DNA from: Cytauxzoon felis
Taxonomy: Eukaryota; Apicomplexa; Aconoidasida; Piroplasmida; Theileriidae
Direction: 5' to 3'
Assembly (NCBI GenBank): GCA_020283715.1
Contig: JAIQCW010000135.1
Span: forward strand, 1-15,629
DNA: 15,629 nucleotides
A program made the translations under genes and the position numbers. This document shows positions 1-15,629 of the stretch, one piece after another. The notes beneath the pieces were generated by a model. It was not told the DNA's origin, ran no database searches, and saw only the letters and a list, made by a program, of their open reading frames with translations. Within the stretch, counting starts at the first letter, position 1. The number at the start of each line of letters is the position of its first letter.

Positions 1-92
1 CTCCGGGAGTGGCTATACTCTTTAGAGATAGGTAATTAGAAGAGGCCTCCACGGCGAGTGGAAGAGAAGAGGTGGATTGGACCTCAGGTGGA
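1..92. mobile_element. TIR element in intron, right arm only (cut by window edge)
   Basis: The stretch contains the family blocks GAGTGGCTAT, AGAAGAGGCCTCCACGGCGA and the terminal ACCTCAGGTGGA. It closely matches the right arm of the element at 5948-6264, so it is the same subtype. The remaining 49 nt to the acceptor at 141 is AT-rich intron shoulder, as at the other introns. The left arm and loop lie outside the window. Confidence 0.72.
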
Positions 93-141
93 GTGGATTG
101 GACTTTGTTGATTTTCCTTCATTATAAATAAATATATATAG

Positions 142-834
142 AGGATAGTGCATGTGATAGAGATGTATAAATCGAAAATAGATACATCGATAGTGGAGTC
201 ATTATATAATATAGTAAAGAGTATAATAGATGGTCAATTATATCCATATTCCTCAACAGATTATAGGAATATACAATTGATTGAGTATATAAAATTTTTA
301 ATGACATTAGGTAAATATAAGGTATGTATAGATTTAATATTTGATAATTGGTTGAATATAAATAATACAAATATAATAATACCTGGATCTGTTGCATATA
401 ATTTATGGTATGTATTTGAATCAAGTGGTAATATTAATAATATTATTGAAAGATTAATTAATAATAATGCTATAAATTTTATTTATTTTTCTAATGATAA
501 TAATTTAAAATATATTTTATCATCATTATCTAATTTAATATTAAATAATAATATCAATACATTTCAATATCTATACTTATTACAATGGTTAATATATAAA
601 CATACTAATCTATTAAATAATAAAGATCTTAAAAATATTAATAAAGCATTAAATACATTAATCAATAATAATAATAATATAATACATCTAGAACCTTATC
701 TATCCACTTTCAATTTCAATTATAATGATATCATCAATACCAAATTAACCAATCTCTCATTCCATACAATACTACTCATCTCCAAAATTACCAATGTCGA
801 TCCATTACAATTAAACCATATCAAAAATATACAG
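142..834 (+). CDS. TRRAP/Tra1-like gene, exon a (helical-repeat region)
   Basis: This internal exon has 231 codons, beginning RIVHVIEMYK after the acceptor ATATATAG at 134-141 and ending ...KNIQ before the donor GTTTGTTG at 835. It is alternating hydrophobic and polar helices rich in Asn and Ile, as expected of the N-terminal HEAT-type solenoid of Tra1. No catalytic motif is visible. On its own it would not be recognisable; it is assigned by frame and splice continuity with the later exons. An acceptor at 143 instead of 141 is possible and would change the first codon only. Hand counts of G:C are about 22:6 in the first 100 nt and 3:27 in the last 100 nt. Confidence 0.7.
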
Positions 835-3800
835 GTTTGTTGACAAATTATGAAGTATTTCCCCCACCTGAAGTCTATCTAACTCTCTTCCACTCGGCGT
901 GGTGCCTTCTCTATTTATTTCCCCTTCCAGCTCCCGTAGATCGTTCTCGGGTTCTCCACTTGAGGTCCAGTACTAATCTCGGCGAGATACGTCTAAAGTG
1001 ACGATATTCATATAAGTGAGGTTATCTCAATGAATATTTAATAGAATGAAGTGAAGATGAGTAAATTCAATACAATCATCAAATCCTTTTGAATGAAGTA
1101 TTGACATTTATAATTCATTTAATAGTCATTCCACAATCATCAGTAGTTTCCCCAGAAATTGAGGATTTCCTTCAAATTTTCGAGGTAAAAATGAAGTAGT
1201 GAAATTAGTAGAAATTGGACCTCAGGTGGAGACATCAAGTGGATTTACCCGAAAACGATCTATGGGAGTTTGAGGGGGAAGTAAATAGAAGAGCTCCATG
1301 CAATGGGAAAGAGAGGTGGAAAGGACCTCAGGTGGACTGGATGGAACTTCATGTATAATGTATATAATTGATAATATAGGATATGGATGATGTATCGATT
1401 AGGTATACGATACCTTTATTATTGTATGATAGATCTGAGTATAGATTACGTCGTGTATTGAGTAGGATGGTAGAGATATCTGATAGTGATATGTATGATA
1501 TGTATGATTATGATGAGTTATTTGATTTATCTTGGGATGTATTAAGGAATGGTGGTCAATTAGATCGTATATATTCATTATATATATTATCACGTTTGGT
1601 ATGTGTATATAATATGGAATTATTGGGTATTATAAATATATTTAGAAGTTTTATTGATGTAATATGTACATATGAGACTATAAATTTATTGAATAGATAT
1701 AATTCATTATCATTAGATATTATAGATGGTGATATATATATGTTGATTTATAATACTGTTGTAAATTTAATTATTAAATTATCTAATGTATTAACACCTA
1801 TGGATTGTTGGTATGAATTAGATATTGAAATTGATGGTGATATTAGTTATCCTATATGGGTATGGATTATATTGAAAAGATTGAAATTATGTGATATAGA
1901 ATTAATTATACCATTATTTGGTGGGGTTATATTATATTTAAATATTGCTTATGAATTATTTAATACATTATTTGATGATATATTAAATTATTTATATACT
2001 ATGCAAGAAAATTTATCTTATAATTGGAGACGTGATCATATGGATGTTTTCTTTGGTATATTATTATTACGTGATCATTTTTCTAATTTACAAGGATATG
2101 ATGAAAATGGGGTAATGGATATAGATGGGGTAAAAAAACCCTACAATAATGAGATGATAATAAATTTATTTGTAAGATTATTGATATTACCGATAGCATA
2201 TAATAATGTGAATATAGAGAATGTATTAAGATATGAGGAATTCTATATAAAATTTATATATAAGCATCAGCCATTTATGATAATAAATCGTATATTAAAT
2301 TCATTACCATTATTAAATTTAAGAAAAGAATTAAGATTAACAGATCAATATATAGGTGGTTATAATATATTGGGTAATGATGTAAATAAATCAGATTATA
2401 AGAAGATGTTTTTAACATTACAAATGAAGAAGCATACGACTACAGAATATCATACAGAATTACAACAACGTGGTTATTATAAAGCATCAATAATTGTATT
2501 AAAATTAATTAATCATTTATTAGATTATATTATACCTGATGAATTAAATTTATTACATATTAAAGGTATATTAAAAAAATTATGGCCTGTTAGATATCCA
2601 CCTGTAGCTAAAGAATTCCAATATTGTATATTAAGATTATCTACCCTATATCATAATAATGTACAATTTATTTCATGGATTCAATCCTCTATTAATGATG
2701 AAATTAAATCAATCACTCTTAGAAATGATAATAATTTTAAAAATTATGATAATAATGAATTCGATTTAAATATGAAATATATTACCCAATCTTCTATTAA
2801 TTCTATACCTGGTAATAATGTTTTAAACCCCATACAAAATAATATTCATGGCCCCATACAAAATAATATTCATGGCCCCATACAAAATGGTGTTTTAAAC
2901 CCCATACCGTCCAATAGTAATATATCATCTAGTGATTATAATAATATTAGAGTAGAATCATGTTTTTCTACAGCTATTAGAACATTTATAACATTATGTA
3001 AAGTATTAATGTATAATAAAGATGTACTAAAAGATACAATTGAATTTATGTTACCACAATTCCTACCATCATTAGTATCAATACTAAATTGGAATATCGA
3101 AAATCTAAAGTCATTTAAAAATGGAAATCTAAGAGTTCAAAATTGTTTATGGATGTTACCACCCCATAATAATGATAATGCATGCAATATGATACAAATA
3201 GATACAGGACTATTAATTGAATATGATGGAGGTAAAAGATTAGATCAATTAATCACACTAATTATAATCACATTACCATTATTAGATGATAAAACACAAG
3301 AACTATTCTATAAACTACTCTCAATACTCATGAAAAATATCATACACCCATATAATCCCCATATCGTCAATAAATTGTCGTTTCTATTCAATAATTACTG
3401 CAACCAATCCATCAATCTCAATGATAATGGATTATTCAATGATTATCAAAATAATACACCACAAAATTTAGATAGAAAAAGCCCCAGAAATACCCCATCT
3501 ACTCACCCCACCGAGAGGAAATTTAGTAATACTACATCACTAGATAAAAAGAGCCCTAGAATATCATCAAAAAAGAAAGATGTAAAGAATAATATACATA
3601 TACCAATCATAGAACCCATATATAATACAACACTAACAACAAATGAAATCCACCAATTATATAAACCAATCGATGATAGCCACTTCAAATCTACCAAAAA
3701 TACCATCGAACTACCAAATGTTATCTCAAAAGAATACGATCTTCAACTCAAAAAAAGAAATAAATTTAAATACCCCACATTTAAAAATCTCATTGATACC

Positions 3801-6800
3801 ACCAAAACAATCGTCAAAAATTTTATCAAATCCAATGATAAAAATTATAAACTCGTTTATAATATCATATACTCATTAAGACATTTATCAAAACATGATT
3901 TGATATCCAATAAATTCAATCATTTCTACTATAATATACTCGAAGATGGAGAGGAGGAAGAGGAGGAGGATGAAGATGATGACGAATCATCCATCAAAAA
4001 TAAATTAATCGCATATACATCCTGCATCTCTAATATACATCAACCATTTCTAGAATTTAATCAAAATAAAACTCATAAAAATATATACCTCACACTCATC
4101 AATATCTTCAAATCAAACATCACGCTCGATAATGATCAATACACACCACTACTACTCGATTATATCCAACCCTACTTTATCAAAGTATGTTTATAATAAT
4201 GAAGATCCTCCACTCGAGGTCCAATCCACCTTTCCTTCGTCTTGCAGACAGCTTCTCTATTTACTTCCCCTTCCAGCTCCTGTACATCGCTTCCAGGTTC
4301 TACTTGAGGTCTCCACTCGAGGTCCAATCACTAACTTCATTTTTATTCCCAAAATTTGAAGGAAATCCTGAATTTCTGGGGAAACTCATGATGATAGCTC
4401 AATCAATATTGAATGCTTTTCTGATGTCAATACTTCATTGAAGAGGAATTTGATGATTCTATTGAATTTAATAAACCTCCCTTCATTCCAATTTATATTC
4501 ATTGAGATATCATGACAAACATAGATTCCATCACTTTAGTCGTATCTCGTTGAGATTAGGAATTATAACCTCAAGTGGAAGTAGACTACCCGCAGCTGAT
4601 CTCAGGGAAGCGGAGGGGGAAATAAATAGAAGAGCTGTCTGCAAGACAACGAAGGGTGGAAGTGGAGAAGAGGTGGTTGTAATCTCAAGTGGAAGTATTC
4701 GCTTCATATATATATATATATATATAGGATGAGGAGTTGGGTATAAATATGGAGTATCCGAGATTTCCTTCGTTATGTTCGTATAGGCGTGTGATAAAGA
4801 GTCAATTGGATTTTATATGTGATTTATCTAATATTGGTATGATAAGGGAGAATGTGCGTATATTATGTGATTTTAAGAAGTATGATTCATCATTGATGAA
4901 ATATGATGATAAAAATGTGACTATGGATGTGGATATGGATAAGATAACGATTGAATATATTGATGATGATAAATCATTATTAAAATCGATGTTGAATGAG
5001 ATATATATATATAATGTATCATATATGAATGAATATATTAAATGTGGTTATTTTATAAAATCATTAAGGAATTTATGGCATCTTGATATAAAATTTTCAA
5101 TAGAACTATGGGGTTATTTATTTCAACAATTATATGGTATATTATCAGAATGTAGACAATTAGAATTAGGTAAATTATTATGTATATATTTATGTAAATT
5201 AGATCATGTATATAATAATAATCCAATATGTAAAACAATATTATTGGGTGCATTAAAATGTTATCCACCAATAAATATATCACCAGAGATATTAAAATAT
5301 ATGGCATTAAATTTTAGATGTTGGTTTGAATGTATATATTATTTAGAGAAACAAATATTATCACAACCATTAGATATAACAAGGATAGCTACAGTATTAT
5401 CAGATTTATGGGATAAATTAAATTATAATGATTTATCAATAGGTTCTACAAGAACATGGGTTATTACACAAGAAACTAGATTAGCTATTTCATATTTGCA
5501 ACATTCTAAATGGAAACAAGCACAAAGAGAATTTAATTCTATAGTTGATTCATTAGCTATTGCTGGACAAACTGCTGAAACTGTATCTAATTTTGATGAA
5601 TCTAGAGTATGGTATAATGGATGGGTACAATGTACTAAACAATTAGCTGAATGGGATCATATTAGAGATGTTGCATATGCTGCTGGTGATCAAAAATTAT
5701 TTGTACAATCATGCTCTGTATTACAAGATTGGACCGGTACTGATGATACAATATGGAAAACCGAACCATTACCTTGGGCATTAGATAATGCCAATTATAT
5801 CTATAATAAAATCAACTTCAAATTCCATAACGCTATCGCACCATTCAAACAATCCAATACCAATACACACCCATGGCTCTTTGTACACGAAACCAGACAA
5901 TTAGATAAACTATTACAGGTTTGTTGAAGACTTATACACTCTAGTGATCCACCCGAGGTCCAATCCGCATCTATTCCACTCGCCGTGGAGGCCTCTTCTA
6001 TTTAGTTATCCCTGAAGGGTAATGCCACTCCCGGAGATCGTGACTAATGTAGGGTTTATTTAGTATTATGTGGTAACTGGGGATAATTAACACTATAACC
6101 CTATAATTGCCTTATAATAATACTATTATTCAACCCGGAAGAACAAATATAATATTAGCCACGATCTCTGGGAGTGGCATTACCCTTCAGGGATAACTAA
6201 ATAGAAGAGGCCTCCACGGCGAGTGGAATAGTGGTGGTAACCTCAGGTGGAGGACCTCGGGTGGAATATTGATTTTGATAATAAATGATATATAGGATGG
6301 TCGTAAGAATGTATTGGATTCATGGTTGCGTTTACCTGAGTTGTTATGTAGTGCTCATGAATTACCGATACAATTGAATCAGAGATATTTAGAGATAGAT
6401 GAGAGTATGAAATTTGTGACACGTACATTATTTAATTTATATAAGGGTATACTTATAGATGAATCATTAATATTAAATAAATGGCGTAGTAGATTACCTA
6501 GAAAGAGTGATCAACCTAATGTATGGAATGAATTATTATCATGGAGAAGTTTAGTATTTTCATCAATGAAATCGATATTAATGAATAATATAATAATATC
6601 TAAAGATATAAAGCCAAATATAATAACAAATATACAAGATTATCCATGGACATTAGTAAAATTTGCATCTGTAGCTAGAAAATCACATCAATTACCATTA
6701 ATGTCATCAGTATTATTAAATAAAGCACAAAAATTTTTATTATCAATTACTAAAAATAATATTATTGGTGAAGATTATTATTCTATTACTATAGAACGTT

Positions 6801-9800
6801 TAAAACAATATTTAACATTTCCAATGAATATACCTGATGCATTAAAAAATGTTATTACATTAGATGTAGATAAATTACCCAATAAAAATTTTGAAACATT
6901 AAAAGCACATGTTATAAGATTAAAATCTGAAGCTATTAATAGAAGTTCAAATTTTGATAAAAGACAAATTTCATTAGGTATGTTTGATATAAATTATTTA
7001 AATTTTACCCCATTTTATATATAGATTTAGATGTAACCTATAAATATATACTTGAAGCATTAAAATTACAACCATTATTATCTAAAGCATGGATAACATG
7101 GGCCAAATTCAATGATAATAAAATCGATCATAATAATATCACACAATGGAAAAATAATCTCGATGATAAACCCAAAGATTATTACGAATCAGCCATCATG
7201 GGATATCTAGTCGCCATCTCTATCAGGTAATATAATCATTACAGAAAATTTGAAATATAATACATATCCTCCACTCGAGGTTACATCTCCACCTCTCCTT
7301 CTCCTGCAGACGGCTCTCCATCTGAGGTCTTCCACTCGCCGTGGTGGCCTCTTCTATTTACTTCCCCTTCCAGCTCCCGTAGATCGCTTCCAGGTATTAC
7401 ACTTGAGGTTTCCACTCGAGGTCCAATCACTAATTTCAAAACTTCATTTTCACTACCAAAATTTGAAGGAATTTCATCATTTCTGGAGAAACTCATGAAG
7501 ATTATGGAATGACCATTCAATGAACTTCTAATCTTAATACCTCATTGAAAAGGAATTTGATGATTGTATCGAGTTTCCTGATCCTCACTTCATTCCAATT
7601 TATATTTATTGAGATATCCCTTCAAACATTGATTCCGTCACTTTATACGTATCTCGCTGAGATTAGATTTTATAACCTCAAGTGGAAGTGGAATACCCGC
7701 AGCTGATCTCAGGGAAGCGAAGGGGGAAGTAAATAGATGAAGCCACCACGGCGAGTGGAAGAGCTGACGGCAGGATGGACCTCAGGTGGATTGGGCCTTA
7801 GATTGAATTATATTCATTATATATATTATATAGGCCAGATTTGCATTGGTTATTGATAAAGCGTGTATTGGTATTATTGAATGAGATGCATATGATAGGT
7901 ATAGTGAGTGAGAATTTTAAGAGATATAGTGATCAGATACCTATATCTGTATGGTTGATATGGTTACCTCAATTAATAACATGGTTATATCGTATAGATT
8001 CATTAGAGATACAACATGTATTGATGATGTTGATGGAGAGATGTCCACAGCAAGTATTTTATTTTATACGTTGTGAATATTTATCACAAATGTTATTAAA
8101 TGATAATAATAATAATAATGAGAATATACGTAATATATTGGGTACATTAATATCATCAAATCATATGATTGGTACAATATTAGAAAAATTTGCAAATACA
8201 TTAACACAATTGGGTAAACCAGATTTATTAGATGAGATATTATGTGCATCAGAAACAATATTTGAAGAATGTTTAGATTTACCATTTAATGAAAAAATAC
8301 CATTACCAATGTTAAATTGTTTAATAATAAAAATACCAAAAAGATGTCAATTATATGATAATAATAATAATAATATAATAGATCATCAATTAATAATATT
8401 AATGAATGAATTTAGTAATGATTTTAAATGTAATGAAAATGATAGATTAACATGTGGTGATGTTATGAATAAATTATTAAAATGGATAACAAGATTAAAT
8501 ACATTACCATTAAATACAAATTATAATTTAATACAACAACAATTATATAATTTAAAATTATATAATGAATTTTTATATAATATTAAACGTATTAATTTTC
8601 AATTACAATTACCAACATTACAATTACCTATATGTTTATTAAATCCAAAATTAAGATTAACATTAGGTGAATATAATAATATAAATTTTATATCATCAAA
8701 AATTATTAAACGTAAAAGAAGAAATCATATTATAAAATCTATAAATATTATTACTAATGATGGATTAAATCATATTTATTCATTACATCCATTAACATTA
8801 CAAAAACAAAAATCTGAATTACATATTACACAAATGATTAAATTATTTAATTCTTATATTATTAAATATAATGAAACTAGAAGACGTAATATTATATTAC
8901 CAATTACTAATATTATACCATTAGATCCTTATATTTGTCTACTTGAAGATGAATATAATGATATTACATTATCTACTATATTCGAAAATTCAATCAATTT
9001 CAATAATCTACTCAATCTACCCCATCATTTATCAAAATCTTATGATAATTTCAATAATATACAATCTAATTATGAACAATCACCATCAAAAATACAATTC
9101 AATACAAATTTATTATCTACATCACCATTAAATCTATCATTAACATCACCATTCAAAATCACAATCTCACCAAATATCAAACATAATGATAAAAATTTAT
9201 TCATATCAAATGAACATAATCTCAACCTCAACTCACCCTCGAAATTTATTACATCTACACAACATGATGCACAATCCAATCCACCCGAGGTTACAGCCAG
9301 TGTTCCACTCGCCGTGGAGGCCTCTTCCAATTACCCCCCCGTAAACGGTAAAACCACTCCCGGAGATCGTGGTGAAGGTGAGGGTGGTGAGGATGGAAGT
9401 AGAGTTAAGGATGTAACCTCAAGTGGAATGAAGAGTAGTACTGGACCTCAAGTGGAACCCGTAGCTGATCTCAGGGAAGCGAAGGGACAACTAAATAGAA
9501 GAGCTGTCTGCAAGACAAACGAACGGCGAGTGGAAGAGAGTAGGACTGTAACCTCAGGTGGAAGAGAAGGTGATGAATATCATGTTAATAGTTTGGTTTC
9601 TTCTACTAGGTTATTATGTATGGATGATTATTCGACAAAGGAGACGAATTTATTATTATTGGTTCTTCATAAGATGTTATTGGAGTGTAATGTGACACGT
9701 AAATTATGTGAATGTTGGAATAATTATAATACGGGTACAGTTGATGATTTATCATTTACACAGGTTTATCAATTATTTAAGGAGAAACAATATCCATGGT

Positions 9801-10498
9801 TTGCTACTTGGTATAAGAAGATACATCAAGATGTATTACAGGATGCTTATAATTATTTATGTGAAATTGTACCTGATGATATTCTCATTAATTATTCATT
9901 CCATCAATATAATGATTATCAAAACTTTATTATGTTCAGGAATAAATTCACTAGCAATTATGCTAGCCAGGCTATATTAAATTTAATGTTTTCTACACCA
10001 TATTCAACACCATGTAAAATATCATTGAATTTTAAATCAGGCATAGTGAAACAATTTGATTTTAGGATAAATTATTCTAGAGATTTTTTTGTTGAATATA
10101 GTAAATTACGTGTATTCAGATTGACTAGGAATATAAAAAATATGATTGGATCAGTATGTAGATTAGGTATATTACCAGCTGTTATGTACTCTTTATGCGC
10201 TTGTATACATAATTTCAAATTCGATTTACACGCTGGACTCACCGCTATATTTAACGATGAATTCATTTTTAATACCAATGAAGATGTAAATACAAGCACC
10301 GATGGCAATAAAAAAGATGTTAACCCATTAGATGAATATATTAGCAGAATATTGAATTATTGCTCATATCTACGGTCACCCAGTGATCAAGAACATTGCA
10401 ATGTACCGATCAATAACATCATCACATGTATCATCGACGCCTCTACAGATTCCGCGATGCTAGGTAAACTCAAAACCAGCTATCAACCATGGTTCTAA
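142..10498 (+). CDS. TRRAP/Tra1-like PIKK pseudokinase, 3' part of gene (six exons)
   Basis: Joining 142-834, 1380-4184, 4728-5918, 6296-6977, 7025-7226 and 7834-10498 gives one frame of 2,746 codons ending in TAA. Donors are GTTTG, GTATG or GTAAT; acceptors end TATAG. Intron phases are 0, 0, 0, 1 and 2, and all five junctions keep the frame, which is strong evidence for one gene. Identity comes from recalled similarity to human TRRAP and yeast Tra1: a FAT block around WYNGWVQCTKQLAEWD, the block VWLIWLPQLITWL, the block RVFRLTRNI, and a C-terminus ending PWF. Known role: a large non-catalytic scaffold (usually about 3,700-3,900 residues) that recruits SAGA and NuA4 acetyltransferases to transcription activators in the nucleus. 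About 1,000 N-terminal residues should lie upstream. Family assignment is firm; the function in this organism is inferred. Confidence 0.88.
835..1379 (+). other. Long intron, phase 0, carrying a TIR element
   Basis: The intron runs from donor CAG|GTTTGTTGAC to acceptor AATATAG|GAT and is 545 nt long. The element fills most of it, with AT-rich shoulders of about 26 nt on the left and 44 nt on the right. If the element were absent, the shoulders alone would make an intron of about 70 nt, near the size of the short intron at 6978-7024. Confidence 0.85.
861..1335. mobile_element. Long TIR element (copy B), inner core inverted
   Basis: The outer arms (about 861-954 and 1243-1335) are imperfect inverted repeats with blocks such as TTCCACTCGGCGTGG, ATTTCCCCTTCCAGCTC and, on the right, GGGGGAAGTAAATAGAAGAG. 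The inner core (about 955-1242) is bounded by CCACTTGAGGTCC and GGACCTCAGGTGG. It is the reverse complement of the cores at 4300-4580 and 7400-7685: TTTCCCCAGAAATTGAGGAT here corresponds to the strand-flipped ATCCTGAATTTCTGGGGAAA at 4376. No protein coding is apparent, so it is non-autonomous. No clear target-site duplication is seen. Confidence 0.82.
1380..4184 (+). CDS. TRRAP/Tra1-like gene, exon b (HEAT solenoid with disordered inserts)
   Basis: This is an uninterrupted 935-codon exon that starts D-MDDVSIRYT after TATAG and ends ...QPYFIK before the donor GTATGT at 4185. The ATG at 1383 is internal, so it need not be a start codon. Most of it is helical repeat sequence, rich in Leu, Ile, Tyr and Asn. 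Three low-complexity inserts stand out. One is an Asn/Pro segment with an 8-residue repeat (IQNNIHGP, about 2818-2906). One is a Ser/Lys/Asn-rich segment with DKKSPR and DRKSPR (about 3420-3600). One is an acidic run of Glu and Asp (about 3945-3990). Such inserts are common in AT-rich protist versions of large scaffolds and probably loop out of the solenoid. Confidence 0.78.
2818..2906 (+). repeat. Coding tandem repeat, 24-bp unit
   Basis: The 24-bp unit starting CCCCATACAAAATAAT occurs at 2828-2851 and 2852-2875, then again as a 15-bp partial copy from 2876. The array is bracketed by two copies of TGTTTTAAACCCCATAC (near 2819 and 2891). It encodes an 8-residue repeat, PIQNNIHG. The copies are identical, so the expansion is recent. 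It lies in a disordered insert of the Tra1-like protein. Confidence 0.85.
4185..4727 (+). other. Long intron, phase 0, carrying a TIR element
   Basis: This 543-nt intron has donor AAA|GTATGTTTAT and acceptor (TA)n-TAG|GAT; a dinucleotide TA run directly precedes the acceptor. Translation into the intron from exon b meets TAA within four codons, so it must be spliced for the downstream FAT domain to be made. Confidence 0.86.
4207..4693. mobile_element. Long TIR element (copy C)
   Basis: The outer arms start CTCCACTCGAGGTCCAATCC and end TCTCAAGTGGAAG. Their inner parts pair: GTCTTGCAGACAGC on the left with GCTGTCTGCAAGAC on the right, and TTTACTTCCCCTTCC with GGGGGAAATAAATAG. The inner core (about 4300-4580) is bounded by TACTTGAGGTCT and ACCTCAAGTGG. 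Its orientation is the same as in the 7268-7790 copy and opposite to that in the 861-1335 copy. It has no coding capacity beyond chance short frames. Confidence 0.83.
4728..5918 (+). CDS. TRRAP/Tra1-like gene, exon c (N-terminal FAT domain)
   Basis: This exon has 397 codons, from DEELGINMEYP after the acceptor TATATATAG to ...LDKLLQ before the donor GTTTGTTG at 5919, phase 0 at both ends. The second half matches the TRRAP FAT domain as I recall it: paired helices with QETRLAISYLQHSKWKQAQ, then VWYNGWVQCTKQLAEWDHI, then a VLQDW end that parallels the human pattern of W-x(2)-HW-x-RC-x-KELNQW. FAT helices wrap the kinase-like domain in PIKK proteins and serve as the binding platform. This exon and the next carry the clearest family signal upstream of the pseudokinase. 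Confidence 0.87.
5919..6295 (+). other. Intron, phase 0, carrying a short TIR element
   Basis: This 377-nt intron has donor CAG|GTTTGTTGAA, very like the donor at 835, and acceptor GATATATAG|GAT. The AT-rich shoulders are 29 nt and 31 nt. Reading through from exon c gives VC-stop, so splicing is required to reach the next FAT segment. Confidence 0.86.
5948..6264. mobile_element. Short palindromic TIR element (copy D)
   Basis: The ends are TCCACCCGAGGTCC and GGACCTCGGGTGGA, a perfect 14-nt inverted repeat. Inside, 5971-6048 and 6154-6231 are 78-nt arms that pair with only two mismatches by eye. They enclose an AT-rich loop of 105 nt (6049-6153) that differs from the core of the long copies. 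The near-perfect arms imply a recent insertion or arm-to-arm correction. It has the form of a MITE: no coding sequence, and strong fold-back potential in DNA or RNA. Confidence 0.88.
6296..6977 (+). CDS. TRRAP/Tra1-like gene, exon d (FAT domain, middle)
   Basis: The exon is 682 nt, starting DGRKNVLDSWLRLPELL after the acceptor TATATAG and ending one base into a codon before the donor GTATGT at 6978. It contains KWRSRLPRKSDQPNVW and ELLSWRSLVF, matching the TRRAP FAT segment with the pattern TWRNRLP...SDDLSHW...WR. A helical stretch with VARKSHQLPLMSSVLL fits the family's ARKQGL...AL pattern. Reading past 6977 gives only an artefactual extension ending at the TAG that is the acceptor of the 47-nt intron. 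Confidence 0.86.
6978..7024 (+). other. Short 47-nt spliceosomal intron, no repeat element
   Basis: It begins GTATGTTTGAT and ends TTTTATATATAG. Its removal joins G + AT to make Asp and restores the frame, giving DLDVTYKYILEALKLQ. That sequence continues the FAT-domain match, including KAWITWAKF, which parallels KAW-x-x-WGDYLE in TRRAP. The length is 2 mod 3, so it must be removed. It probably shows the ancestral size of introns in this gene, before repeat insertion. Confidence 0.88.
7025..7226 (+). CDS. TRRAP/Tra1-like gene, exon e (FAT domain, short exon)
   Basis: This 202-nt exon has no start codon of its own and is visible only after splicing. It encodes about 67 residues including SKAWITWAKF and YYESAIMGYLVAISIR, which match the TRRAP segments KAWALWGDYLE and the helix ending AI-x-CYL-x-A. 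It ends two bases into a codon; the first base of exon f completes an Arg codon (AG|G). The last part is clearly A/C-rich (about 24 C in the last 100 nt), so the composition drift continues across the 47-nt intron. Confidence 0.86.
7227..7833 (+). other. Long intron, phase 2, carrying a TIR element
   Basis: This 607-nt intron has donor ATCAG|GTAATATAAT and acceptor ATTATATAG|GCC. The shoulders are about 41 nt and 43 nt. It splits an Arg codon (AG|G) and joins the FAT segments YLVAISIR and PDLHWLLIKR, which are contiguous in the TRRAP family pattern. Confidence 0.85.
7268..7790. mobile_element. Long TIR element (copy E)
   Basis: The outer arms begin TCCACTCGAGGTTACATC and end GGACCTCAGGTGGA. 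They carry the shared blocks CCACTCGCCGTGGTGGCCTC on the left and GCCACCACGGCGAGTGG on the right, plus TTTACTTCCCCTTCCAGCTC paired with GGGGGAAGTAAATAG. The inner core (about 7400-7685) is bounded by CACTTGAGGTTTCC and ACCTCAAGTGG and matches the core of copy C in the same direction. No transposase is encoded. Confidence 0.83.
7834..10498 (+). CDS. TRRAP/Tra1-like gene, exon f (end of FAT, pseudokinase and FATC)
   Basis: The last exon starts RPDLHWLLIKRVLVLL and ends ...SYQPWF-stop. Early on, IPISVWLIWLPQLITWL and RCPQQVFYFIRCEYL match the TRRAP end-of-FAT block (W-x-WIPQLL...YPQAVYF-x-IR). The kinase-like domain runs from about 8650. It includes NHIYSLHPL, ETRRRNIILPITNIIPLDP, YQNFIMFRNKFTSNYASQA, RVFRLTRNI and a helix with FKFDLHAGL. 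The D-R-H-x-x-N and DFG motifs of active PIKKs are not seen, as in all TRRAP/Tra1 proteins. Between 8990 and 9570 an Asn/Ser-rich disordered insert leads into an exonized repeat element. A final segment ending PWF corresponds to FATC. Confidence 0.88.
9280..9562. mobile_element. Exonized TIR element (copy F) read in frame inside exon f
   Basis: It starts TCCACCCGAGGTTACAGCC and ends TAACCTCAGGTGGA. The left part resembles copy D (CCACTCGCCGTGGAGGCCTC, then CACTCCCGGAGATCGTGG). The right part resembles copies C and E (GCTGATCTCAGGGAAGCGAA, AAATAGAAGAGCTGTCTG). It has none of the AT-rich GT...TATAG shoulders found around the intronic copies. The Tra1 frame runs straight through it as about 94 residues rich in Gly, Glu, Ser, Thr and Arg. 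It lies in a disordered part of the pseudokinase domain between otherwise conserved blocks. Confidence 0.82.
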
Positions 10499-10910
10499 TG
10501 ATGAGATTTGTATTAATATTTCTCACCAAATTCAACCCTAGGTCATTTACAAGTGACGAAGACACTTTATAAACATTGAATGCAATTATAATCATCATAA
10601 TTTATATCTAATACCATTTACAACTGAAGTATAGGTTTATATTAATTTTATGAATTATAATTATTTATATATATCTACATATATCTTATATAGGTAGTAT
10701 ACTTCAATTCATGTTACTAGTTATATAGTATATATATTATAATAATTATTTATATAAATACATATATACCTTCATACAACTATATATCATCCTTCAATTG
10801 TATTGATATAAGAGTATATGTTATATTAAATGAGAAATCATCAAAAGATGTTAATATTATGCGGTTAACACCCCATTATTATGGGGTATGTGGTGATATA
10901 GTGCTTTCAG
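10499..10910. promoter_or_regulatory. AT-rich intergenic region between the Tra1-like gene and the Cys-rich genes
   Basis: This is about 410 nt of very AT-rich sequence with no family TIR element. It should hold the 3' end signals of the Tra1-like gene and the promoter, and perhaps a first exon, of the next gene. A 9-bp inverted repeat TGAAGTATA (10625) and TATACTTCA (10698) and two loosely similar AATTATTTATATA stretches (near 10658 and 10745) are present. Short ATG frames (at 10501, 10830 and 10859) all close within about 20 codons. I cannot assign a promoter motif. Confidence 0.4.
10870..10887. other. Small perfect stem-loop upstream of the Cys-rich gene
   Basis: ACCCCAT (10870-10876) and ATGGGGT (10881-10887) pair perfectly around a TATT loop. 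It is one of the few GC-containing patches in the AT-rich spacer and overlaps a possible donor, GGG|GTATGTGG at 10886. It could be a regulatory hairpin, part of a small 5' exon, or chance. Confidence 0.4.
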
Positions 10911-11745
10911 ATGTTATGTCTATTGTAATCTGAATTGCAAGGAAGGTTGTACTTCTACTGATGGTGGTACATGTCCATGTTGTAAGACCGCTGAGAATTG
11001 TAATTGTTCATGTTGTTCCACAGAAAGTTCCACTACTGAGTGTAAATGTGGGCTCTGTTGCTTTCGTTCCCAATTATATTTTTGTTCCAAATGTGCAAAA
11101 AATAATCAGTCTAGTACTCAATCCAATGGTAGTCTGGATGTTAATTGTGCTATATCATGTGCCTGTAATAATACTGCTACTTCCAATGGTACAGCATGTA
11201 ATGCTCAGGGATCTTCTAATGGTAATGGTACTAGTGCTCTAACTTATGGATGTTGTAATGGATGTAGGATTGGATGTGGTTTGCAGAGATTGAATGAAAA
11301 TATTGATAAATTGAATACTAATTTATGTAAAGTCAAGTGTAATGTATATAATATGAATGTAGGACTTGGTAATATATGTAAAGAATTGTGCGATATTTTA
11401 GGGACTCTTAATAAAATTCATAAGAAGTTGTGTAATTTTGAGAAAGTTATTAAGTGTAGGACGAATAGAGTTAATTGTATGAAGTGTTGTTTTAAAAATA
11501 AGTATAATGAGTTGTGTACGAGGATTTCTGCAATAGCCGGTAACAAGCAGGATGATGAGGTTAAAAACTTGGTTTGTTCGTTCTTTAACAAACCCGCAGC
11601 GAATGACTCCACAAATAATTGTGATTTAACTAATAGAATATTTAAGAATTCTTCATTTATTGAGTGTAATAGATCTTATTTTATTTTAAATGATTGTAAT
11701 CTTGATACTATCTGTTCGCATTTGAATGAAATATCTACATATTAG
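10911..11745 (+). CDS. Cysteine-rich family protein 1, N-terminal segment (start unresolved)
   Basis: The frame is open from 10897 to the TAG at 11743 and encodes about 277 residues from the first Cys codon at 10912. It has an N-terminal Cys-dense part (CPCCKTAENCNCSCC, CKCGLCC) followed by Asn/Ser/Thr linkers. A helical part with spaced Cys then follows (RLNENIDKLNTNLCKVKC, MKCCFKNKYNELC). There is no ATG after the in-frame TGA at 10894, so a 5' exon is likely; TTTCAG at 10905-10910 is a plausible acceptor, but I found no matching donor in phase. The family is not recognised. Alternating helical and Cys-cluster domains suggest a secreted or surface protein with many disulphides. It probably continues into the next frame. 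Confidence 0.6.
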
Positions 11746-13259
11746 ATTCTCAATTCCTATTCTTCCTGGATTCTATTATAGAGAACCTATCCAATGTAAT
11801 ACAATTTGTAAGTTATGTTGCGAATGATGAATTTAGTGATGTGAAGAAGTTTGATTATGGGAAGGCAAAGAGTGAGATAGAAGAGAAGAAGTTTGAGAAG
11901 GATAAACCAGGTTGCTGTTGTTGTTGTACTTCTAAGGATAAAGATAAGTGTTGTTGTAAAAACGCTGATGGAAAATGCACTTGTACAGGTAACGGACAAT
12001 GTTGTAAGGATGGTAATTGCTGCTGTAAAGACACGTGTTGTATCAATGGTATAAGTACTGAGAATGGGGATGGTGAAATAAATTTGTGTGAATGTTGTTG
12101 TAAGCATAAGAATGGTCAATGCACAGCTAATTGCACACCTGTTGCAAATGAATGTTATTGCTGCTGTTTATGTGAAGACGCTACATGCACATGTACTCAA
12201 GATGCTTCTGCTTCTACTCCTTCTAATTTAACTAGATGTTGTTGCAATAAATGTGGATCCGGAAATGGAACTGGATGTTGTTCTAGTTGTAAAGATTGTC
12301 AATGTTGCAAGGATAATATCAAACTCTGTGGTTGTTGTCAATGTATCAAAGAGGATAATATAATATCATGTTGTGATTTGCCGGATAATGGTACAGCATG
12401 TGAAAAAGATAATTGTTGTTGTAGTAAGAACTGTGGATGCGGTTCATTTAGTGATGATTCCAATGGTTCCAATTGCAATGGTTTAACTGGTACTGCTACT
12501 GATGGTTGTGGAAACAATACAGGACAATATTGTTGTGATAAAGACGCTAAATGCAAATTAGACATATGTAAGATAAATTGTTGTATGAGGAATTTAACGA
12601 AGACTGAAACCAATGGAAGTAATGGTTGTTTATCGGATATAATTTCGGATATGAAGAATTTCAGTGAGTATTTGGGGAAGGTTAAGAATTGTAATGGTAA
12701 TGGTGGTACGTGTCAATGTACTTGTCCTGAAAACTCAAAATGTTGCTGTAAGGCTCTAGATAAGGAGAAATGTTGTGATATGTATTGTAAAGTTTTGAAA
12801 ATGTATAAGGAAATATTTACTTGTACTGAGGAGAAGAAGAATGGTCACAATGGAAAGGTTAGTATATGCCAGGGCACGGATAAATGCATATTCTGTATTT
12901 TGTGTTGTTTAAAAAATAATGCGACTAAAATTCAGGATAATTATAAGGAATGTAAAGATGCTACATGTTGTAATATTACGGAGTGTAATAATACTAGTGG
13001 TACTAATGGATGTCAGACAACCAGTGATACTTCTACATGTCCAACAAATGGATGTACTCCAACTAATAGTAGTTGTGCTACTCCAGAAGGAACAACACAA
13101 ACAGAATGCAAATGCGAACAAATATGTACCGACGCAAAATGTTGCAAAGGCGATTCTTCATGCTCTATATGTAATATTTCTCCATCTTCTATTTCTACTT
13201 GTATTAAAAAATTATATAAATTACATCATGCAACATTTCACTTTTATATAATCCTATAG
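11730..13259 (+). CDS. Cysteine-rich family protein 1, C-terminal segment (shifted frame)
   Basis: The frame opens after the TGA at 11727, overlaps the end of the preceding frame by 16 nt, and runs to the TAG at 13257, about 509 codons. It reads ILDSQFLFFLDSIIENLSNVI, then a helical linker, then a very Cys-dense module with runs of up to five Cys (GCCCCCTSKDK, CCCKDTCC, CYCCCLCED, CCQCIKEDNIISCCDL). Many Asn-Gly-Thr and Asn-Gly-Ser sequons occur. It aligns along its length with the gene starting at 13396. The final residues (KLYKLHHATFHFYIIL) may be intron read-through, because GT at 13201 and TATAG at 13255-13259 would bound a 59-nt intron. No transmembrane segment is evident. Function unknown; surface antigen-like by composition. 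Confidence 0.65.
   Translation, partial: NIYILDSQFLFFLDSIIENLSNVIQFVSYVANDEFSDVKKFDYGKAKSEIEEKKFEKDKPGCCCCCTSKDKDKCCCKNADGKCTCTGNGQCCKDGNCCCKDTCCINGISTENGDGEINLCECCCKHKNGQCTANCTPVANECYCCCLCEDATCTCTQDASASTPSNLTRCCCNKCGSGNGTGCCSSCKDCQCCKDNIKLCGCCQCIKEDNIISCCDLPDNGTACEKDNCCCSKNCGCGSFSDDSNGSNCNGLTGTATDGCGNNTGQYCCDKDAKCKLDICKINCCMRNLTKTETNGSNGCLSDIISDMKNFSEYLGKVKNCNGNGGTCQCTCPENSKCCCKALDKEKCCDMYCKVLKMYKEIFTCTEEKKNGHNGKVSICQGTDKCIFCILCCLKNNATKIQDNYKECKDATCCNITECNNTSGTNGCQTTSDTSTCPTNGCTPTNSSCATPEGTTQTECKCEQICTDAKCCKGDSSCSICNISPSSISTCIKKLYKLHHATFHFYIIL
11788..11824 (+). repeat. Identical 37-nt block shared by the two Cys-rich genes (copy 1)
   Basis: The 37 nt here are identical to 14552-14588 and encode SNVIQFVSYVA in both genes. 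Similarity continues downstream through the Cys modules. Upstream of 11788 the two genes do not align visibly. The block therefore marks the left edge of the shared segment. Confidence 0.85.
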
Positions 13260-13395
13260 ATTTCATGTACAACTCCACATACACTCAACCATGTCATCAT
13301 CCAATATTCATAATAGACATGACTAAATTCTATTTAATTCTACATTAATAATTGTAATAATTTCCAATATTTACTTCTAACATAATGTATAGTAA
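13260..13395. other. Short spacer between the two Cys-rich paralogues
   Basis: This stretch is AT-rich with no family TIR element. If the putative intron 13201-13259 is real, about 90 nt here would be a last exon of gene 1, reading YFMYNSTYTQPCHHPIFI and stopping at a TAA near 13349. Otherwise it is spacer and the 5' region of gene 2. Confidence 0.35.
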
Positions 13396-15629
13396 AATTA
13401 CTCTAATGTGTTAATAAATCCCTCTACATTCTATACACACATATTCCTGCTACTCTGTTTCTATGATAATAATGAGGATAGTTGTCAACCTAAGGGACCT
13501 ACAGTCACAACTGAATATAAATCTACTCTAATATGGTTATTATGTGATTTCTGTAAGGATTGTGAGACAGTGAAGAAGAACATTGAGAAGGGTGAGAAGG
13601 GAATATCATGTTGTCCGGGGGAGGAGGAAAAGAAGGAGGAGAAGGAGGCTAAGACTACAGCAAATGCATGTACTGCGAGTTCAACGGATGGTAAAGCAAC
13701 TTCATGTGAGGATACTTCTCAGGCTACATGTACTGCAGTTGCAAGCACTCCTTCATGTGCTACTCCTACAACTCCTACTCCAGTATCAACTGAACCAAGT
13801 ACTAATGGATCAACTGATTGTAAACTTGGACAATTGAAGACAAAATTAGATAAAGCAACATGTGATGTACTTACAAAAATGAAGAATGAGATAACAAATG
13901 GAACTAATGATTGTCCATGTACTAATAAGGATAAGATTCAGAACTTCGTTGAGAAGTCAATGGATAATTGTAAAAAGGAGGCAAAGGAATTAATTGATAA
14001 TGTTAATGCACAAGTGATAGATACAAGATCATATGAAGAGATGGAACCATATATAAAAGAATTTAGCCTTAAACTCTTATGTCTATTGTTATACAAACGT
14101 TTAGTTGAGGAATTAATCCTATTACACAACTTCCTTGAATCTATTATAAATAATTTATCAAATTGTTGTGATGAAATTAAATCATGTACGTGTGGAAGTT
14201 CTGATAATAATTGTTCTAAGGATGGAAAATGTTTATGTACTATATTCTGTAAACTCTGTTGCCTATCCATTACATTGCATGATAGATATTGTAAGATTAT
14301 TAATTATATGAAAGGAGAATCTGATGAAGATTTATATAAAGTTATACCTTCATTATCTCTAACTAGATCCATTGTTTTATTAACGAAGTATTGTAAAGAG
14401 TATATATGTAAAATAGATGAGGAAAGTAATTGTGCGACACAACCTGGAGCTGCAAATGGAAAGTGTCCGTGTCATAAATACAGTAGTAAATTGGATGAGA
14501 TATTAACATCATTATGTAAGGCAATGGATGATGATACATCAGATGATGTATTATCCAATGTAATACAATTTGTAAGTTATGTTGCGAAGGATGAATTTAG
14601 TGAGGTGGAGAAGTTTACATATGATAAGAATAAGATAGATAAGGAGTTTGATAAAGCTAAGTTGGGTTGTTGCTGTTGTCGTACTAAAAATAATAATAAG
14701 AAGTGTTGTTGTGGAAAAGATAGTGAAACATGTACTTGTGCAGAGAATGGAAAATGCTGTCAGGATGATAAATGTTGTTGTAAAGACACGTGTTGTTGTA
14801 TCAAGGGTGTGGATGCTGAGAAACAGGAAGTTGAAATAAATTTATGTGACTGCTGTTGTAAGCATGAGAAAGGTAAATGCACAGGTAAATGCGAATGTAC
14901 ACAGGTTGTAGATAAGAAATGTTACTGCTGCTGTTTGTGTGAAGATAACTGTAGCCCATGTCATCAAAATGCTTCTACTACTTTGGATGATTTGAAAAGA
15001 TGTTGTTGCAATGATTGTGGAGCTAAGAGTGGATGTTGTCAAGAGTGTCAATGCAATAAGAATATCACGATCTGTAAATGTTGTCAATGTATCAAAGAGG
15101 ATAGAATAATATCTTGTTGTGATTTGGAGGAAAAGACTAATGGTACATGCGGAGAAGATAAATGTTGTTGTTGTAAAGAAGGTTGTAAATGTAATGATTT
15201 TAAAAATGGTTGCAATGATTTAGATAGTAGTTCTCAGACTACTTGTGGAAACAATTTAGGAAAATATTGTTGTGATGAAAGTAAGGCATGTCAATTAGAC
15301 ATGTGCAAGATTAGTTGTTGTATGAGGAATTTAACGAAGAAGACTGGATCCAACGGAAATAATGTTTGTCTAATGACGATAGTTTCGGATATGAAGAGTT
15401 TCAGTGGGTATTTGAAGAGGATTAAGGAATGTACTGGTAACGGTACGTGTACGTGTAAATGCACTGAAGATAATGAATGTTGTTGTAAGACTCTAGATGA
15501 AAAGGGGAAATGTTGTTATATGTATTGTAGGGTCCTACAGATGTATAAGGAAATATTTACAAATGATACTTCTGGTGGTGGGAATGGGAGTAATCATACT
15601 GGTAAGGAAAGTATATGCCAGAATGGCAC
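13396..15629 (+). CDS. Cysteine-rich family protein 2, open at window edge (start unresolved)
   Basis: The frame is open from after the TAA at 13393 to the last base, 744 full codons, with no in-frame ATG near its beginning. A 5' exon or a start by splicing near 13441-13480 is therefore likely; IFLLLCF at about 13441-13461 could be the end of a signal peptide or intronic. Order: a Lys/Glu-rich and Thr/Pro/Ala-rich linker (to about 13820), a helical region with spaced Cys (13825-14640), and from 14660 a Cys-dense module (GCCCCRTKNN, KCCCKDTCCC, CYCCCLCED, CCQCIKEDRIISCCDL). The latter is plainly paralogous to gene 1 from VIQFVSYVA onward. By alignment to gene 1, roughly 130 residues remain beyond the window. 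Probable member of a tandem surface-protein family; VESA1-like only in style. Confidence 0.68.
14552..14588 (+). repeat. Identical 37-nt block shared by the two Cys-rich genes (copy 2)
   Basis: This is the counterpart of 11788-11824. Here it lies inside one continuous frame (SDDVLSNVIQFVSYVAKDEF), whereas in gene 1 it lies about 40 nt after a frame change. The intact frame here is the better guide to the ancestral arrangement. Confidence 0.85.

What the first reader, a model, noticed from the sequence alone, without database searches (positions are those of the whole stretch)
142..10498. Strand-composition sawtooth that resets at each TIR element
Just right of each element the coding strand is G- and T-rich; just left of the next it is C- and A-rich. 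Hand counts of G:C per 100 nt are about 22:6 at the start and 3:27 at the end of exon a, 27:7 and 4:31 for exon b, and 28:8 and 9:30 for exon c. Codon choice follows (Leu TTG then CTA/CTC; Ile ATA/ATT then ATC). The jump also occurs at the exonic element (about 5:24 before, 19:9 after) but not at the 47-nt intron. The reset thus tracks the element, not splicing. Outward replication or outward bidirectional transcription from each element could leave this mutational asymmetry.
Basis: partly seen in the sequence, partly recalled or inferred. Interest (0 to 1): 0.88.

Follow-up and report, generated by a model that had tools for sequence, protein, structure and literature searches.

The report
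Repeats that skew neighbouring DNA strands
In this single-celled parasite's genome, many small inverted-repeat elements lie a few kilobases apart or closer, and for about 300 bases on either side of them the DNA strand leading away from the element is rich in G and poor in C, enough to change the codons of the host genes, which points to a one-sided mutation process spreading outward from the elements.

Summary
Around 65 elements in 145.6 kb, GC skew in the first 100 nt is -0.37 left and +0.34 right. It repeats in 28 other loci (51 of 56 flanks); 0 of 2000 circular shifts reach it. It occurs on sense, antisense and non-coding flanks and around elements read through in frame. It is missing at element-free ORF ends, at 16 predicted element-free introns and at the 47-nt intron. 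So it follows the element, not splicing.

It is not a fork-polarity sawtooth: the mark is short (mostly gone by 300-400 nt) and long intervals are flat inside. Third codon positions change most (GC3 skew +0.77 and -0.59 within 200 nt). The change reads as A-to-G plus C-to-T on the outward strand.

Best reading: strand-biased mutation from local exposure of the outward strand, most likely by outward transcription from the arms. Initiation unwinding, outward repair synthesis and target preference stay open; a small paralog test was null. No RNA, replication or relative-species data were available.

The parts
1..95 (.). right arm of an inverted-repeat element cut by the contig start; exon a lies to its right
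   Evidence: arm profile hit, outward right; about 40 further scored matches at 89-95% over about 90-105 nt elsewhere in the genome
864..1339 (.). element inside the intron 835-1379; spliced-CDS skew jump +1.42
   Evidence: left and right arms; jump
4206..4694 (.). element inside the intron 4185-4727; spliced-CDS skew jump +1.37
   Evidence: left and right arms; 40 scored matches in the genome out of 2788 first-look candidates; jump
5946..6265 (.). short element inside the intron 5919-6295, arms 97% complementary over 78 nt (5971-6048 and 6154-6231); spliced-CDS skew jump +0.87
   Evidence: inverted repeat I5; arms (end refined); single-strand fold z -19.7; jump
7267..7793 (.). element inside the intron 7227-7833; spliced-CDS skew jump +0.60
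   Evidence: arms; jump
9277..9564 (.). element read through in frame in the last long ORF; skew jump +1.27
   Evidence: ORF 7802-10498 without stop; arms; jump
6978..7024 (+). 47-nt intron without element; no upward jump (-0.21)
   Evidence: boundaries; skew
142..10498 (+). Tra1/TRRAP-like host gene, incomplete at the left edge; exons 142-834, 1380-4184, 4728-5918, 6296-6977, 7025-7226, 7834-10498 (splice sites read from the sequence, not proven by RNA)
   Evidence: FAT domain E 7e-11 in 6296-7021, weak Tra1_ring in 4728-5924; Tra1 chains of the PDB E 4e-9; ORFs

Best explanation
Each dispersed inverted-repeat element imposes a local, outward, strand-asymmetric mutation pressure on its flanks. 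Shown: within about 300 nt of the arms the strand that runs 5'->3' away from the element has excess G and a deficit of C and A, whichever way a host gene runs and also where no gene was called. Inferred: on that strand A->G and C->T outpace their complements, as expected if that strand is often single-stranded. Inferred further and least certain: the exposure comes from short outward transcription starting in the arms, which carry a conserved outward TAAATAG box and G-rich runs, so that RNA:DNA hybrids leave the outward (non-template) strand displaced and damaged. Codon usage and amino-acid choice beside the elements follow.
For: Outward skew on sense, antisense and non-coding flanks (0.481, 0.331, 0.293; n=20, 25, 53) and in an independent set (51 of 56 flanks); both sides positive in 82 of 91 isolated two-armed elements. 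All codon positions shift, the third most (GC3 skew +0.77 and -0.59 within 200 nt against +0.13 beyond 800 nt). G/(A+G) rises from about 0.24 to 0.40 and C/(C+T) falls from about 0.27 to 0.21 on the outward strand. Short range and flat interior of long intervals. Arms are G-rich outward (G 0.35, C 0.17) with a conserved TAAATAG block (251 arms). In 12 solo arms the arm side is positive in 11 (0.22) and the other side in 7 (0.07), not significant, p 0.2.
Against: No transcript data. Substitutions inside the elements against their consensus do not show the asymmetry; C>T over G>A on the outward strand is 0.74 (0.54-0.97), the opposite direction, and A>G over T>C is 1.03 (0.82-1.28) (30 copies; arms may be constrained). 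Element-free ORF starts show no such mark (true transcription starts unknown). Elements are not concentrated before coding stretches (16 before, 13 after). Paralogous codons near and far from elements did not differ in the expected way (103 and 114 codons). Skew does not follow arm identity (rho -0.15). Intervals of 800-2200 nt decline more gradually than a strict 300-nt range predicts.
Confidence: 0.4

Rival explanations
1. Replication starts at or beside the elements: either each is an origin whose forks leave opposite skews, or, in a local version, initial unwinding exposes a few hundred bases of the lagging-strand template on each side.
For: Sign is that of a G/T-rich leading strand, two-sided and independent of host gene direction. 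In intervals under 1400 nt the skew crosses zero near the middle.
Against: In 30 flanks of intervals over 2.2 kb the skew is 0.27 at 0-200 nt, 0.07 at 300-400 nt and between -0.08 and +0.11 from 400 to 1600 nt, so fork polarity does not explain it; the jump of about 0.7 exceeds the 9% of yeast origins (PMC3459929 section 16). The local version is not touched by this.
Confidence: 0.2
2. Recurrent nicks or breaks at the element ends are repaired by synthesis running outward from the element with an error-prone polymerase; wobble errors put G for A and T for C into the new, outward strand.
For: Range of a few hundred nt; starts at the arm end; no asymmetry inside elements; mutated flanks after transposon excision and insertion are described in rice (PMC5023962, passages).
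Against: The related idea, resection with damage to the exposed strand, has the wrong sign: in PMC7615360 (passages) the exposed strand is the forward one left of the break, opposite to here by my reading. No context preference pointing to a polymerase. No transposase match in three searches (the hAT search rang in no control).
Confidence: 0.15
3. Target preference or selection: elements inserted or survived where the strand composition already switched, or the flank composition is selected for a DNA-level function.
For: No relative without the elements could be compared. The paralog test shows no near/far contrast. Skew is not linked to arm identity.
Against: No surplus of unoccupied switch sites: 19 up and 23 down peaks at 500 nt or more from elements, mean jump -0.007. 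The mark spans hundreds of nt and all codon positions of host genes.
Confidence: 0.15
4. Splicing or coding composition: exon starts are G/T-rich and exon ends C/A-rich for splicing, or flanks pair with each other around the intron.
For: In this gene four of the five whole elements lie in introns.
Against: Same skew at read-through and non-coding elements; none at element-free ORF ends, predicted introns and the 47-nt intron. Flank-to-flank local alignment score within an element 17.84 against 16.97 (sd 5.31) between elements (62 elements).
Confidence: 0.05

Closest known systems
Introners, intron-generating transposable elements (PMC9860276, passages; Amoebophrya, PMC7789003, passages)
   Same: Dispersed similar elements with inverted repeats inside many introns; some introner families lack target-site duplications or take splice sites from the insertion site.
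   Different: Here splice sites lie 21-40 nt outside the arms in the four introns of this gene, elements also lie in exons and non-coding DNA, and no flank skew is mentioned (term 'GC skew' 0 times in PMC9860276, 'skew' 0 times in PMC7789003).
Skew jump at Candida albicans centromeres (PMC3459929, abstract and section 16)
   Same: A very large (74%) jump that returns to average after a fixed distance, judged there not to be due to replication for that reason.
   Different: About 3 kb range at centromeres, against about 300 nt at a dispersed repeat here.
Opposite GC skews at the 5' and 3' ends of genes in unicellular fungi (PMC3315797, abstract and passages)
   Same: Opposite skews at two ends of genes, at fourfold-degenerate sites, in amino-acid choice and in non-coding flanks.
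   Different: There tied to gene ends with the coding strand C-biased at 5' ends; here tied to elements, G-biased just after and C-biased just before them, and absent at element-free ORF ends.
Transposon-associated mutation of flanks in rice (PMC5023962, passages)
   Same: Flanks of DNA transposons carry extra substitutions, explained by error-prone repair synthesis.
   Different: No strand skew reported in the passages seen ('skew' 0 times).
Strand-asymmetric mutation at human meiotic breaks (PMC7615360, passages)
   Same: Two-sided, strand-asymmetric A>G and C>N changes centred on a site.
   Different: Opposite strand on each side, by my reading, and a range of about 2 kb.

Membership tests
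Introner | similar elements as introns at many sites | tested here: met
   four of five whole elements of this gene in introns; 14 intron-like elements in the larger sample; splicing not shown by RNA
Introner | element creates the intron, with splice sites in the element or its target duplication | tested here: not met
   in this gene splice sites lie 21-40 nt outside the arms; 14 other elements are read through in frame. Some known families co-opt outside sites
Introner | gained recently, absent from relatives' orthologous sites | not testable with these tools
   no relative genome held; protein search with the last exon found no hit at E 0.001
MITE / non-autonomous TIR DNA transposon | terminal inverted repeats, many copies | tested here: met
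   54 of 65 elements have arms on both sides; hairpin fold z -19.7 for one
MITE / non-autonomous TIR DNA transposon | target-site duplication | tested here: not met
   62 elements; best shared 3-mer offset 6 of 62, best 4-mer 3 of 62
MITE / non-autonomous TIR DNA transposon | a transposase source in the genome | tested here: inconclusive
   no match to DDE_3 or MULE nor to the hAT dimer domain, whose search rang in no control genome; other families not searched
Replication-origin skew jump | upward jump at the site, opposite signs on the two sides | tested here: met
Replication-origin skew jump | skew holds or declines slowly to the fork-convergence point | tested here: not met
   near zero from 400 to 1600 nt in intervals over 2.2 kb
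Transcription-start skew | transcripts start at the site and run outward | not testable with these tools
   no RNA data
Transcription-start skew | ordinary gene starts of the same genome show it | tested here: inconclusive
   element-free ORF 5' ends +0.144 (n=33), 3' ends +0.133 (n=24): no such mark, but transcription starts are unknown

The most novel reading that the evidence does not exclude
Several thousand inverted-repeat elements in an apicomplexan genome act as dispersed outward initiation sites (short bidirectional transcription or local unwinding). They write a mutational strand signature into the adjoining 300 nt, so that intron- and exon-borne elements set the codon usage and part of the amino-acid composition of host proteins. 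Selection on the arms keeps them active while their centres decay.
Probability: 0.35. Interest if true: 0.87.

Novelty: new variant of a known kind. Interest (0 to 1): 0.73.

Why it matters
Strand asymmetry is usually tied to replication origins, transcription units or breaks. Here it is tied to a dispersed repeat, is very large (third-position GC skew +0.77 and -0.59 within 200 nt) and reaches host coding sequence. If the elements cause it, they offer thousands of natural replicates of one local process (about 3,800 copies by proportion), so that strand, range and rate can be measured. It would mean that a repeat family shapes host codon and amino-acid use from outside the coding sequence; such composition could also mislead tests of selection and gene finders. 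And it gives a testable lead on what the elements do in a compact parasite genome.

Tried and rejected
Splicing or exon-end selection: rejected by read-through and non-coding elements and by element-free controls. Fork-polarity sawtooth: rejected by range. Flank pairing: rejected. Hidden extra arms as the source of G: 10 arm-end motifs with at most one mismatch in the outward flanks of at least 180 nt, 0 in shuffled flanks, so a few exist but not enough; arms are G/A-rich where flanks are G/T-rich. Break resection with damage to the exposed strand: wrong sign. A WA context preference: not seen; near/far G:A odds ratio 1.88 after A, 1.60 after T, 1.93 after C, 1.03 after G. Age test: arm identity does not track skew (rho -0.15, p 0.28, n=54); minimum arm score rho 0.26, p 0.04 and length rho 0.29, p 0.02, uncorrected for six tests; copies could not be dated because arms stay similar where centres do not. 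Solo arms: not significant. Paralog near/far codons: null, GC3 skew 0.50 near against 0.33 far (103 codons, outward) and -0.05 against -0.19 (114 codons, inward, against expectation). Rfam on the window: 0 matches. Protein search with the last exon: 708 candidates, none at E 0.001. Sigma-70-type promoter scan of one element, a bacterial pattern: 1 site against 1.7 expected.

Limits: genes are codon-score ORF calls, not an annotation; of the 16 predicted element-free introns only 5 score well; the element profile was built from this window, so diverged copies are missed. L001 and L022 (window) were left out of the validation set; L024 was also left out. The validation loci are the best matches to one element, not a random sample. 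L044 entered only (its alignments were printed); L045 was not analysed.
Full report
What is in the window. The window is the whole of contig C78 of an 8.62-Mb genome in 181 contigs. The first 10.5 kb hold a Tra1/TRRAP-like gene: one exon matches the FAT domain (E 7e-11) and Tra1 chains of the PDB (E 4e-9). The genome has 23 AP2-domain matches, 15 over the cut-off, which fits an apicomplexan, though AP2 also rang in one bacterial control; the label piroplasm rests on recall of genome size and of antigen-like families. After the gene come cysteine-rich, antigen-like ORFs at 10897-15627 (no Pfam match at 0.01). The gene is cut by introns at 835-1379, 4185-4727, 5919-6295 and 7227-7833, each holding an inverted-repeat element, and by one 47-nt intron at 6978-7024 without one (boundaries read from the sequence). 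A fifth whole element, 9277-9564, is read through in frame, and a sixth is cut by the contig start.

The elements. Most consist of two arms of roughly 95 nt in inverted orientation around a variable centre. An arm profile finds 65 elements in the window plus 130 kb from three contigs: 38 plain two-armed, 16 two-armed with extra arms, 11 with arms of one orientation only. By proportion that is about 3,800 in the genome (my arithmetic; one search counted 2788 first-look candidates for one query, of which 40 were scored). The 251 arms aligned share blocks such as GATCTC..GGGAG, TAAATAG and ACCTCRRGTGGA and end sharply at the last. Copies of the long family are old: each of 30 copies is 71-78% identical to its closest other copy; agreement with the consensus is 0.76-0.88 per 25 columns in the arms and 0.66-0.77 between them. 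For a short element, three other scored places match most of the length, at 67-78%, while the others match mainly one arm at a time, many at 87-92%. No target-site duplication was found (62 elements).

The observation. Across the 65 elements the GC skew of the first 100 nt is -0.372 +- 0.031 on the left (8% of 63 above zero) and +0.336 +- 0.034 on the right (89% of 65 above zero). In 28 other loci, chosen as best matches to one element, the outward skew is 0.323 +- 0.030, positive in 51 of 56 flanks, and other elements in those loci give 0.313 (54 of 62). No circular shift of element positions reaches the observed value (0 of 2000). Of skew jumps above 0.5, 57 of 78 upward but 3 of 72 downward ones are within 100 nt of an element, and 56 of 65 elements have an upward jump there. 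Of 91 isolated two-armed elements 82 are positive on both sides.

Not splicing, not coding direction. The outward skew at 0-100 nt is 0.481 on flanks coding outward (n=20), 0.331 on flanks coding inward (n=25) and 0.293 on flanks not called coding (n=53); 30 of 128 flanks were mixed. Elements read through in frame (n=14) and intron-like elements (n=14) do not differ (0.47/0.35 and 0.41/0.39). ORF ends more than 500 nt from an element have the same skew at the 5' end (+0.144, n=33) and the 3' end (+0.133, n=24), while ends within 200 nt of an element have +0.443 (n=21) and -0.211 (n=30). Sixteen predicted element-free introns show no jump (-0.054 +- 0.077; heuristic). At 500 nt or more from elements there are 19 upward and 23 downward peaks; four of the upward ones are in this window's antigen-like region, at 10810, 11250, 11810 and 13460, so jumps without an element do exist.

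Shape. The effect is local. G/(A+G) on the outward strand is about 0.37-0.42 for 150 nt and falls to 0.24 by 400 nt; C/(C+T) is about 0.21-0.23 from 25 to 275 nt and returns to 0.25-0.27 beyond (127 elements). In intervals over 2.2 kb the skew is 0.27 at 0-200 nt, 0.07 at 300-400 nt and between -0.08 and +0.11 from 400 to 1600 nt (30 flanks). Against a strictly fixed range, intervals of 800-1400 nt still have +0.18 at 300-400 nt and those of 1400-2200 nt +0.10 at 400-500 nt. In intervals under 800 nt the skew runs from +0.43 to -0.57, which gives the sawtooth look. A fork-polarity model predicts that skew holds until forks meet; section 16 of PMC3459929 uses the same reasoning against a replication cause of the Candida centromere jump.

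Kind of change. Within 200 nt of an element third codon positions have GC skew +0.77 where the sense strand runs outward and -0.59 where it runs inward, against +0.13 beyond 800 nt; first positions are 0.48 and 0.03, second positions 0.15 and -0.29. Synonymous sites change most and replacement sites follow. Against distant sites the outward strand gains G and loses C and A, with T little changed, which I read as A->G and C->T on that strand; no direct substitution data support the direction. Similar changes are known from DNA exposed as a single strand (A>G and C>N in PMC7615360, passages). There the strand exposed by resection is the other one on each side, so resection with damage to the exposed strand has the wrong sign here.

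Mechanism. The exposed strand must be the one that runs 5'->3' away from the element on both sides, in or out of genes. Outward transcription (displaced non-template strand), unwinding at replication initiation (lagging template) and outward repair synthesis with wobble errors all fit the sign (general knowledge, recalled). I rank outward transcription first because the arms carry a conserved outward TAAATAG block and are G-rich outward and because short unstable transcripts of a few hundred nt are common at promoters (recalled). I rank it only moderately: substitutions inside 30 copies show no such asymmetry and for C>T over G>A lean the other way (0.74, 0.54-0.97); element-free ORF starts lack the mark; elements are not concentrated before coding stretches (16 before, 13 after); and no RNA was available. 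Target preference cannot be closed without a relative that lacks the elements; the one natural comparison I could make, paralogous codons near and far, was null.

Known relatives. Opposite skews at gene ends in fungi (PMC3315797), the Candida centromere jump (PMC3459929), introners (PMC9860276, PMC7789003), mutated flanks of rice transposons (PMC5023962) and asymmetry at human breaks (PMC7615360) each share a part; I saw abstracts, passages and, for PMC3459929, section 16, no whole paper. Ten library searches listed no paper whose title or abstract start describes a skew reset at dispersed inverted-repeat elements. The lists were cut at 6-20 rows, most listed papers were not opened and bioRxiv is not held, so this is weak evidence of novelty.

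Noticed in passing
window 9277-9564; C37 12692-13054, 27649-28199 and 29245-29501 (loci L032, L033): Elements read through in frame inside long ORFs, giving hydrophilic peptides that recur between proteins (such as PVADLREA in the window and in L032); 14 such elements in the sample.
   Followed up: partly
window 11730-13256 and 13396-15627: Two cysteine-rich, antigen-like ORFs that are tandem relatives, 51% identical over 378 residues, with upward skew jumps near 11810 and 13460 but no element.
   Followed up: partly
window 5946-6265 and matches in the genome: Arms stay alike between distant copies where centres are not shared, as if the arms were constrained or homogenised.
   Followed up: partly
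flanks at 20-180 nt from elements: TCG and CGA are enriched near elements (1.8- and 1.6-fold) although C is depleted; the C:T change is smallest before G (odds ratio 0.90).
   Followed up: no
L031, L012, L021, L038, L044: A multigene family related to the ORF C37:2714-5566 (26-65% identity); from recall its repeats look like piroplasm secreted-protein domains. No Pfam match for two members.
   Followed up: no
C71:1-30000 (L041-L043): Only 3 elements in 30 kb, against 27 and 29 in 50 kb of C37 and C68.
   Followed up: no
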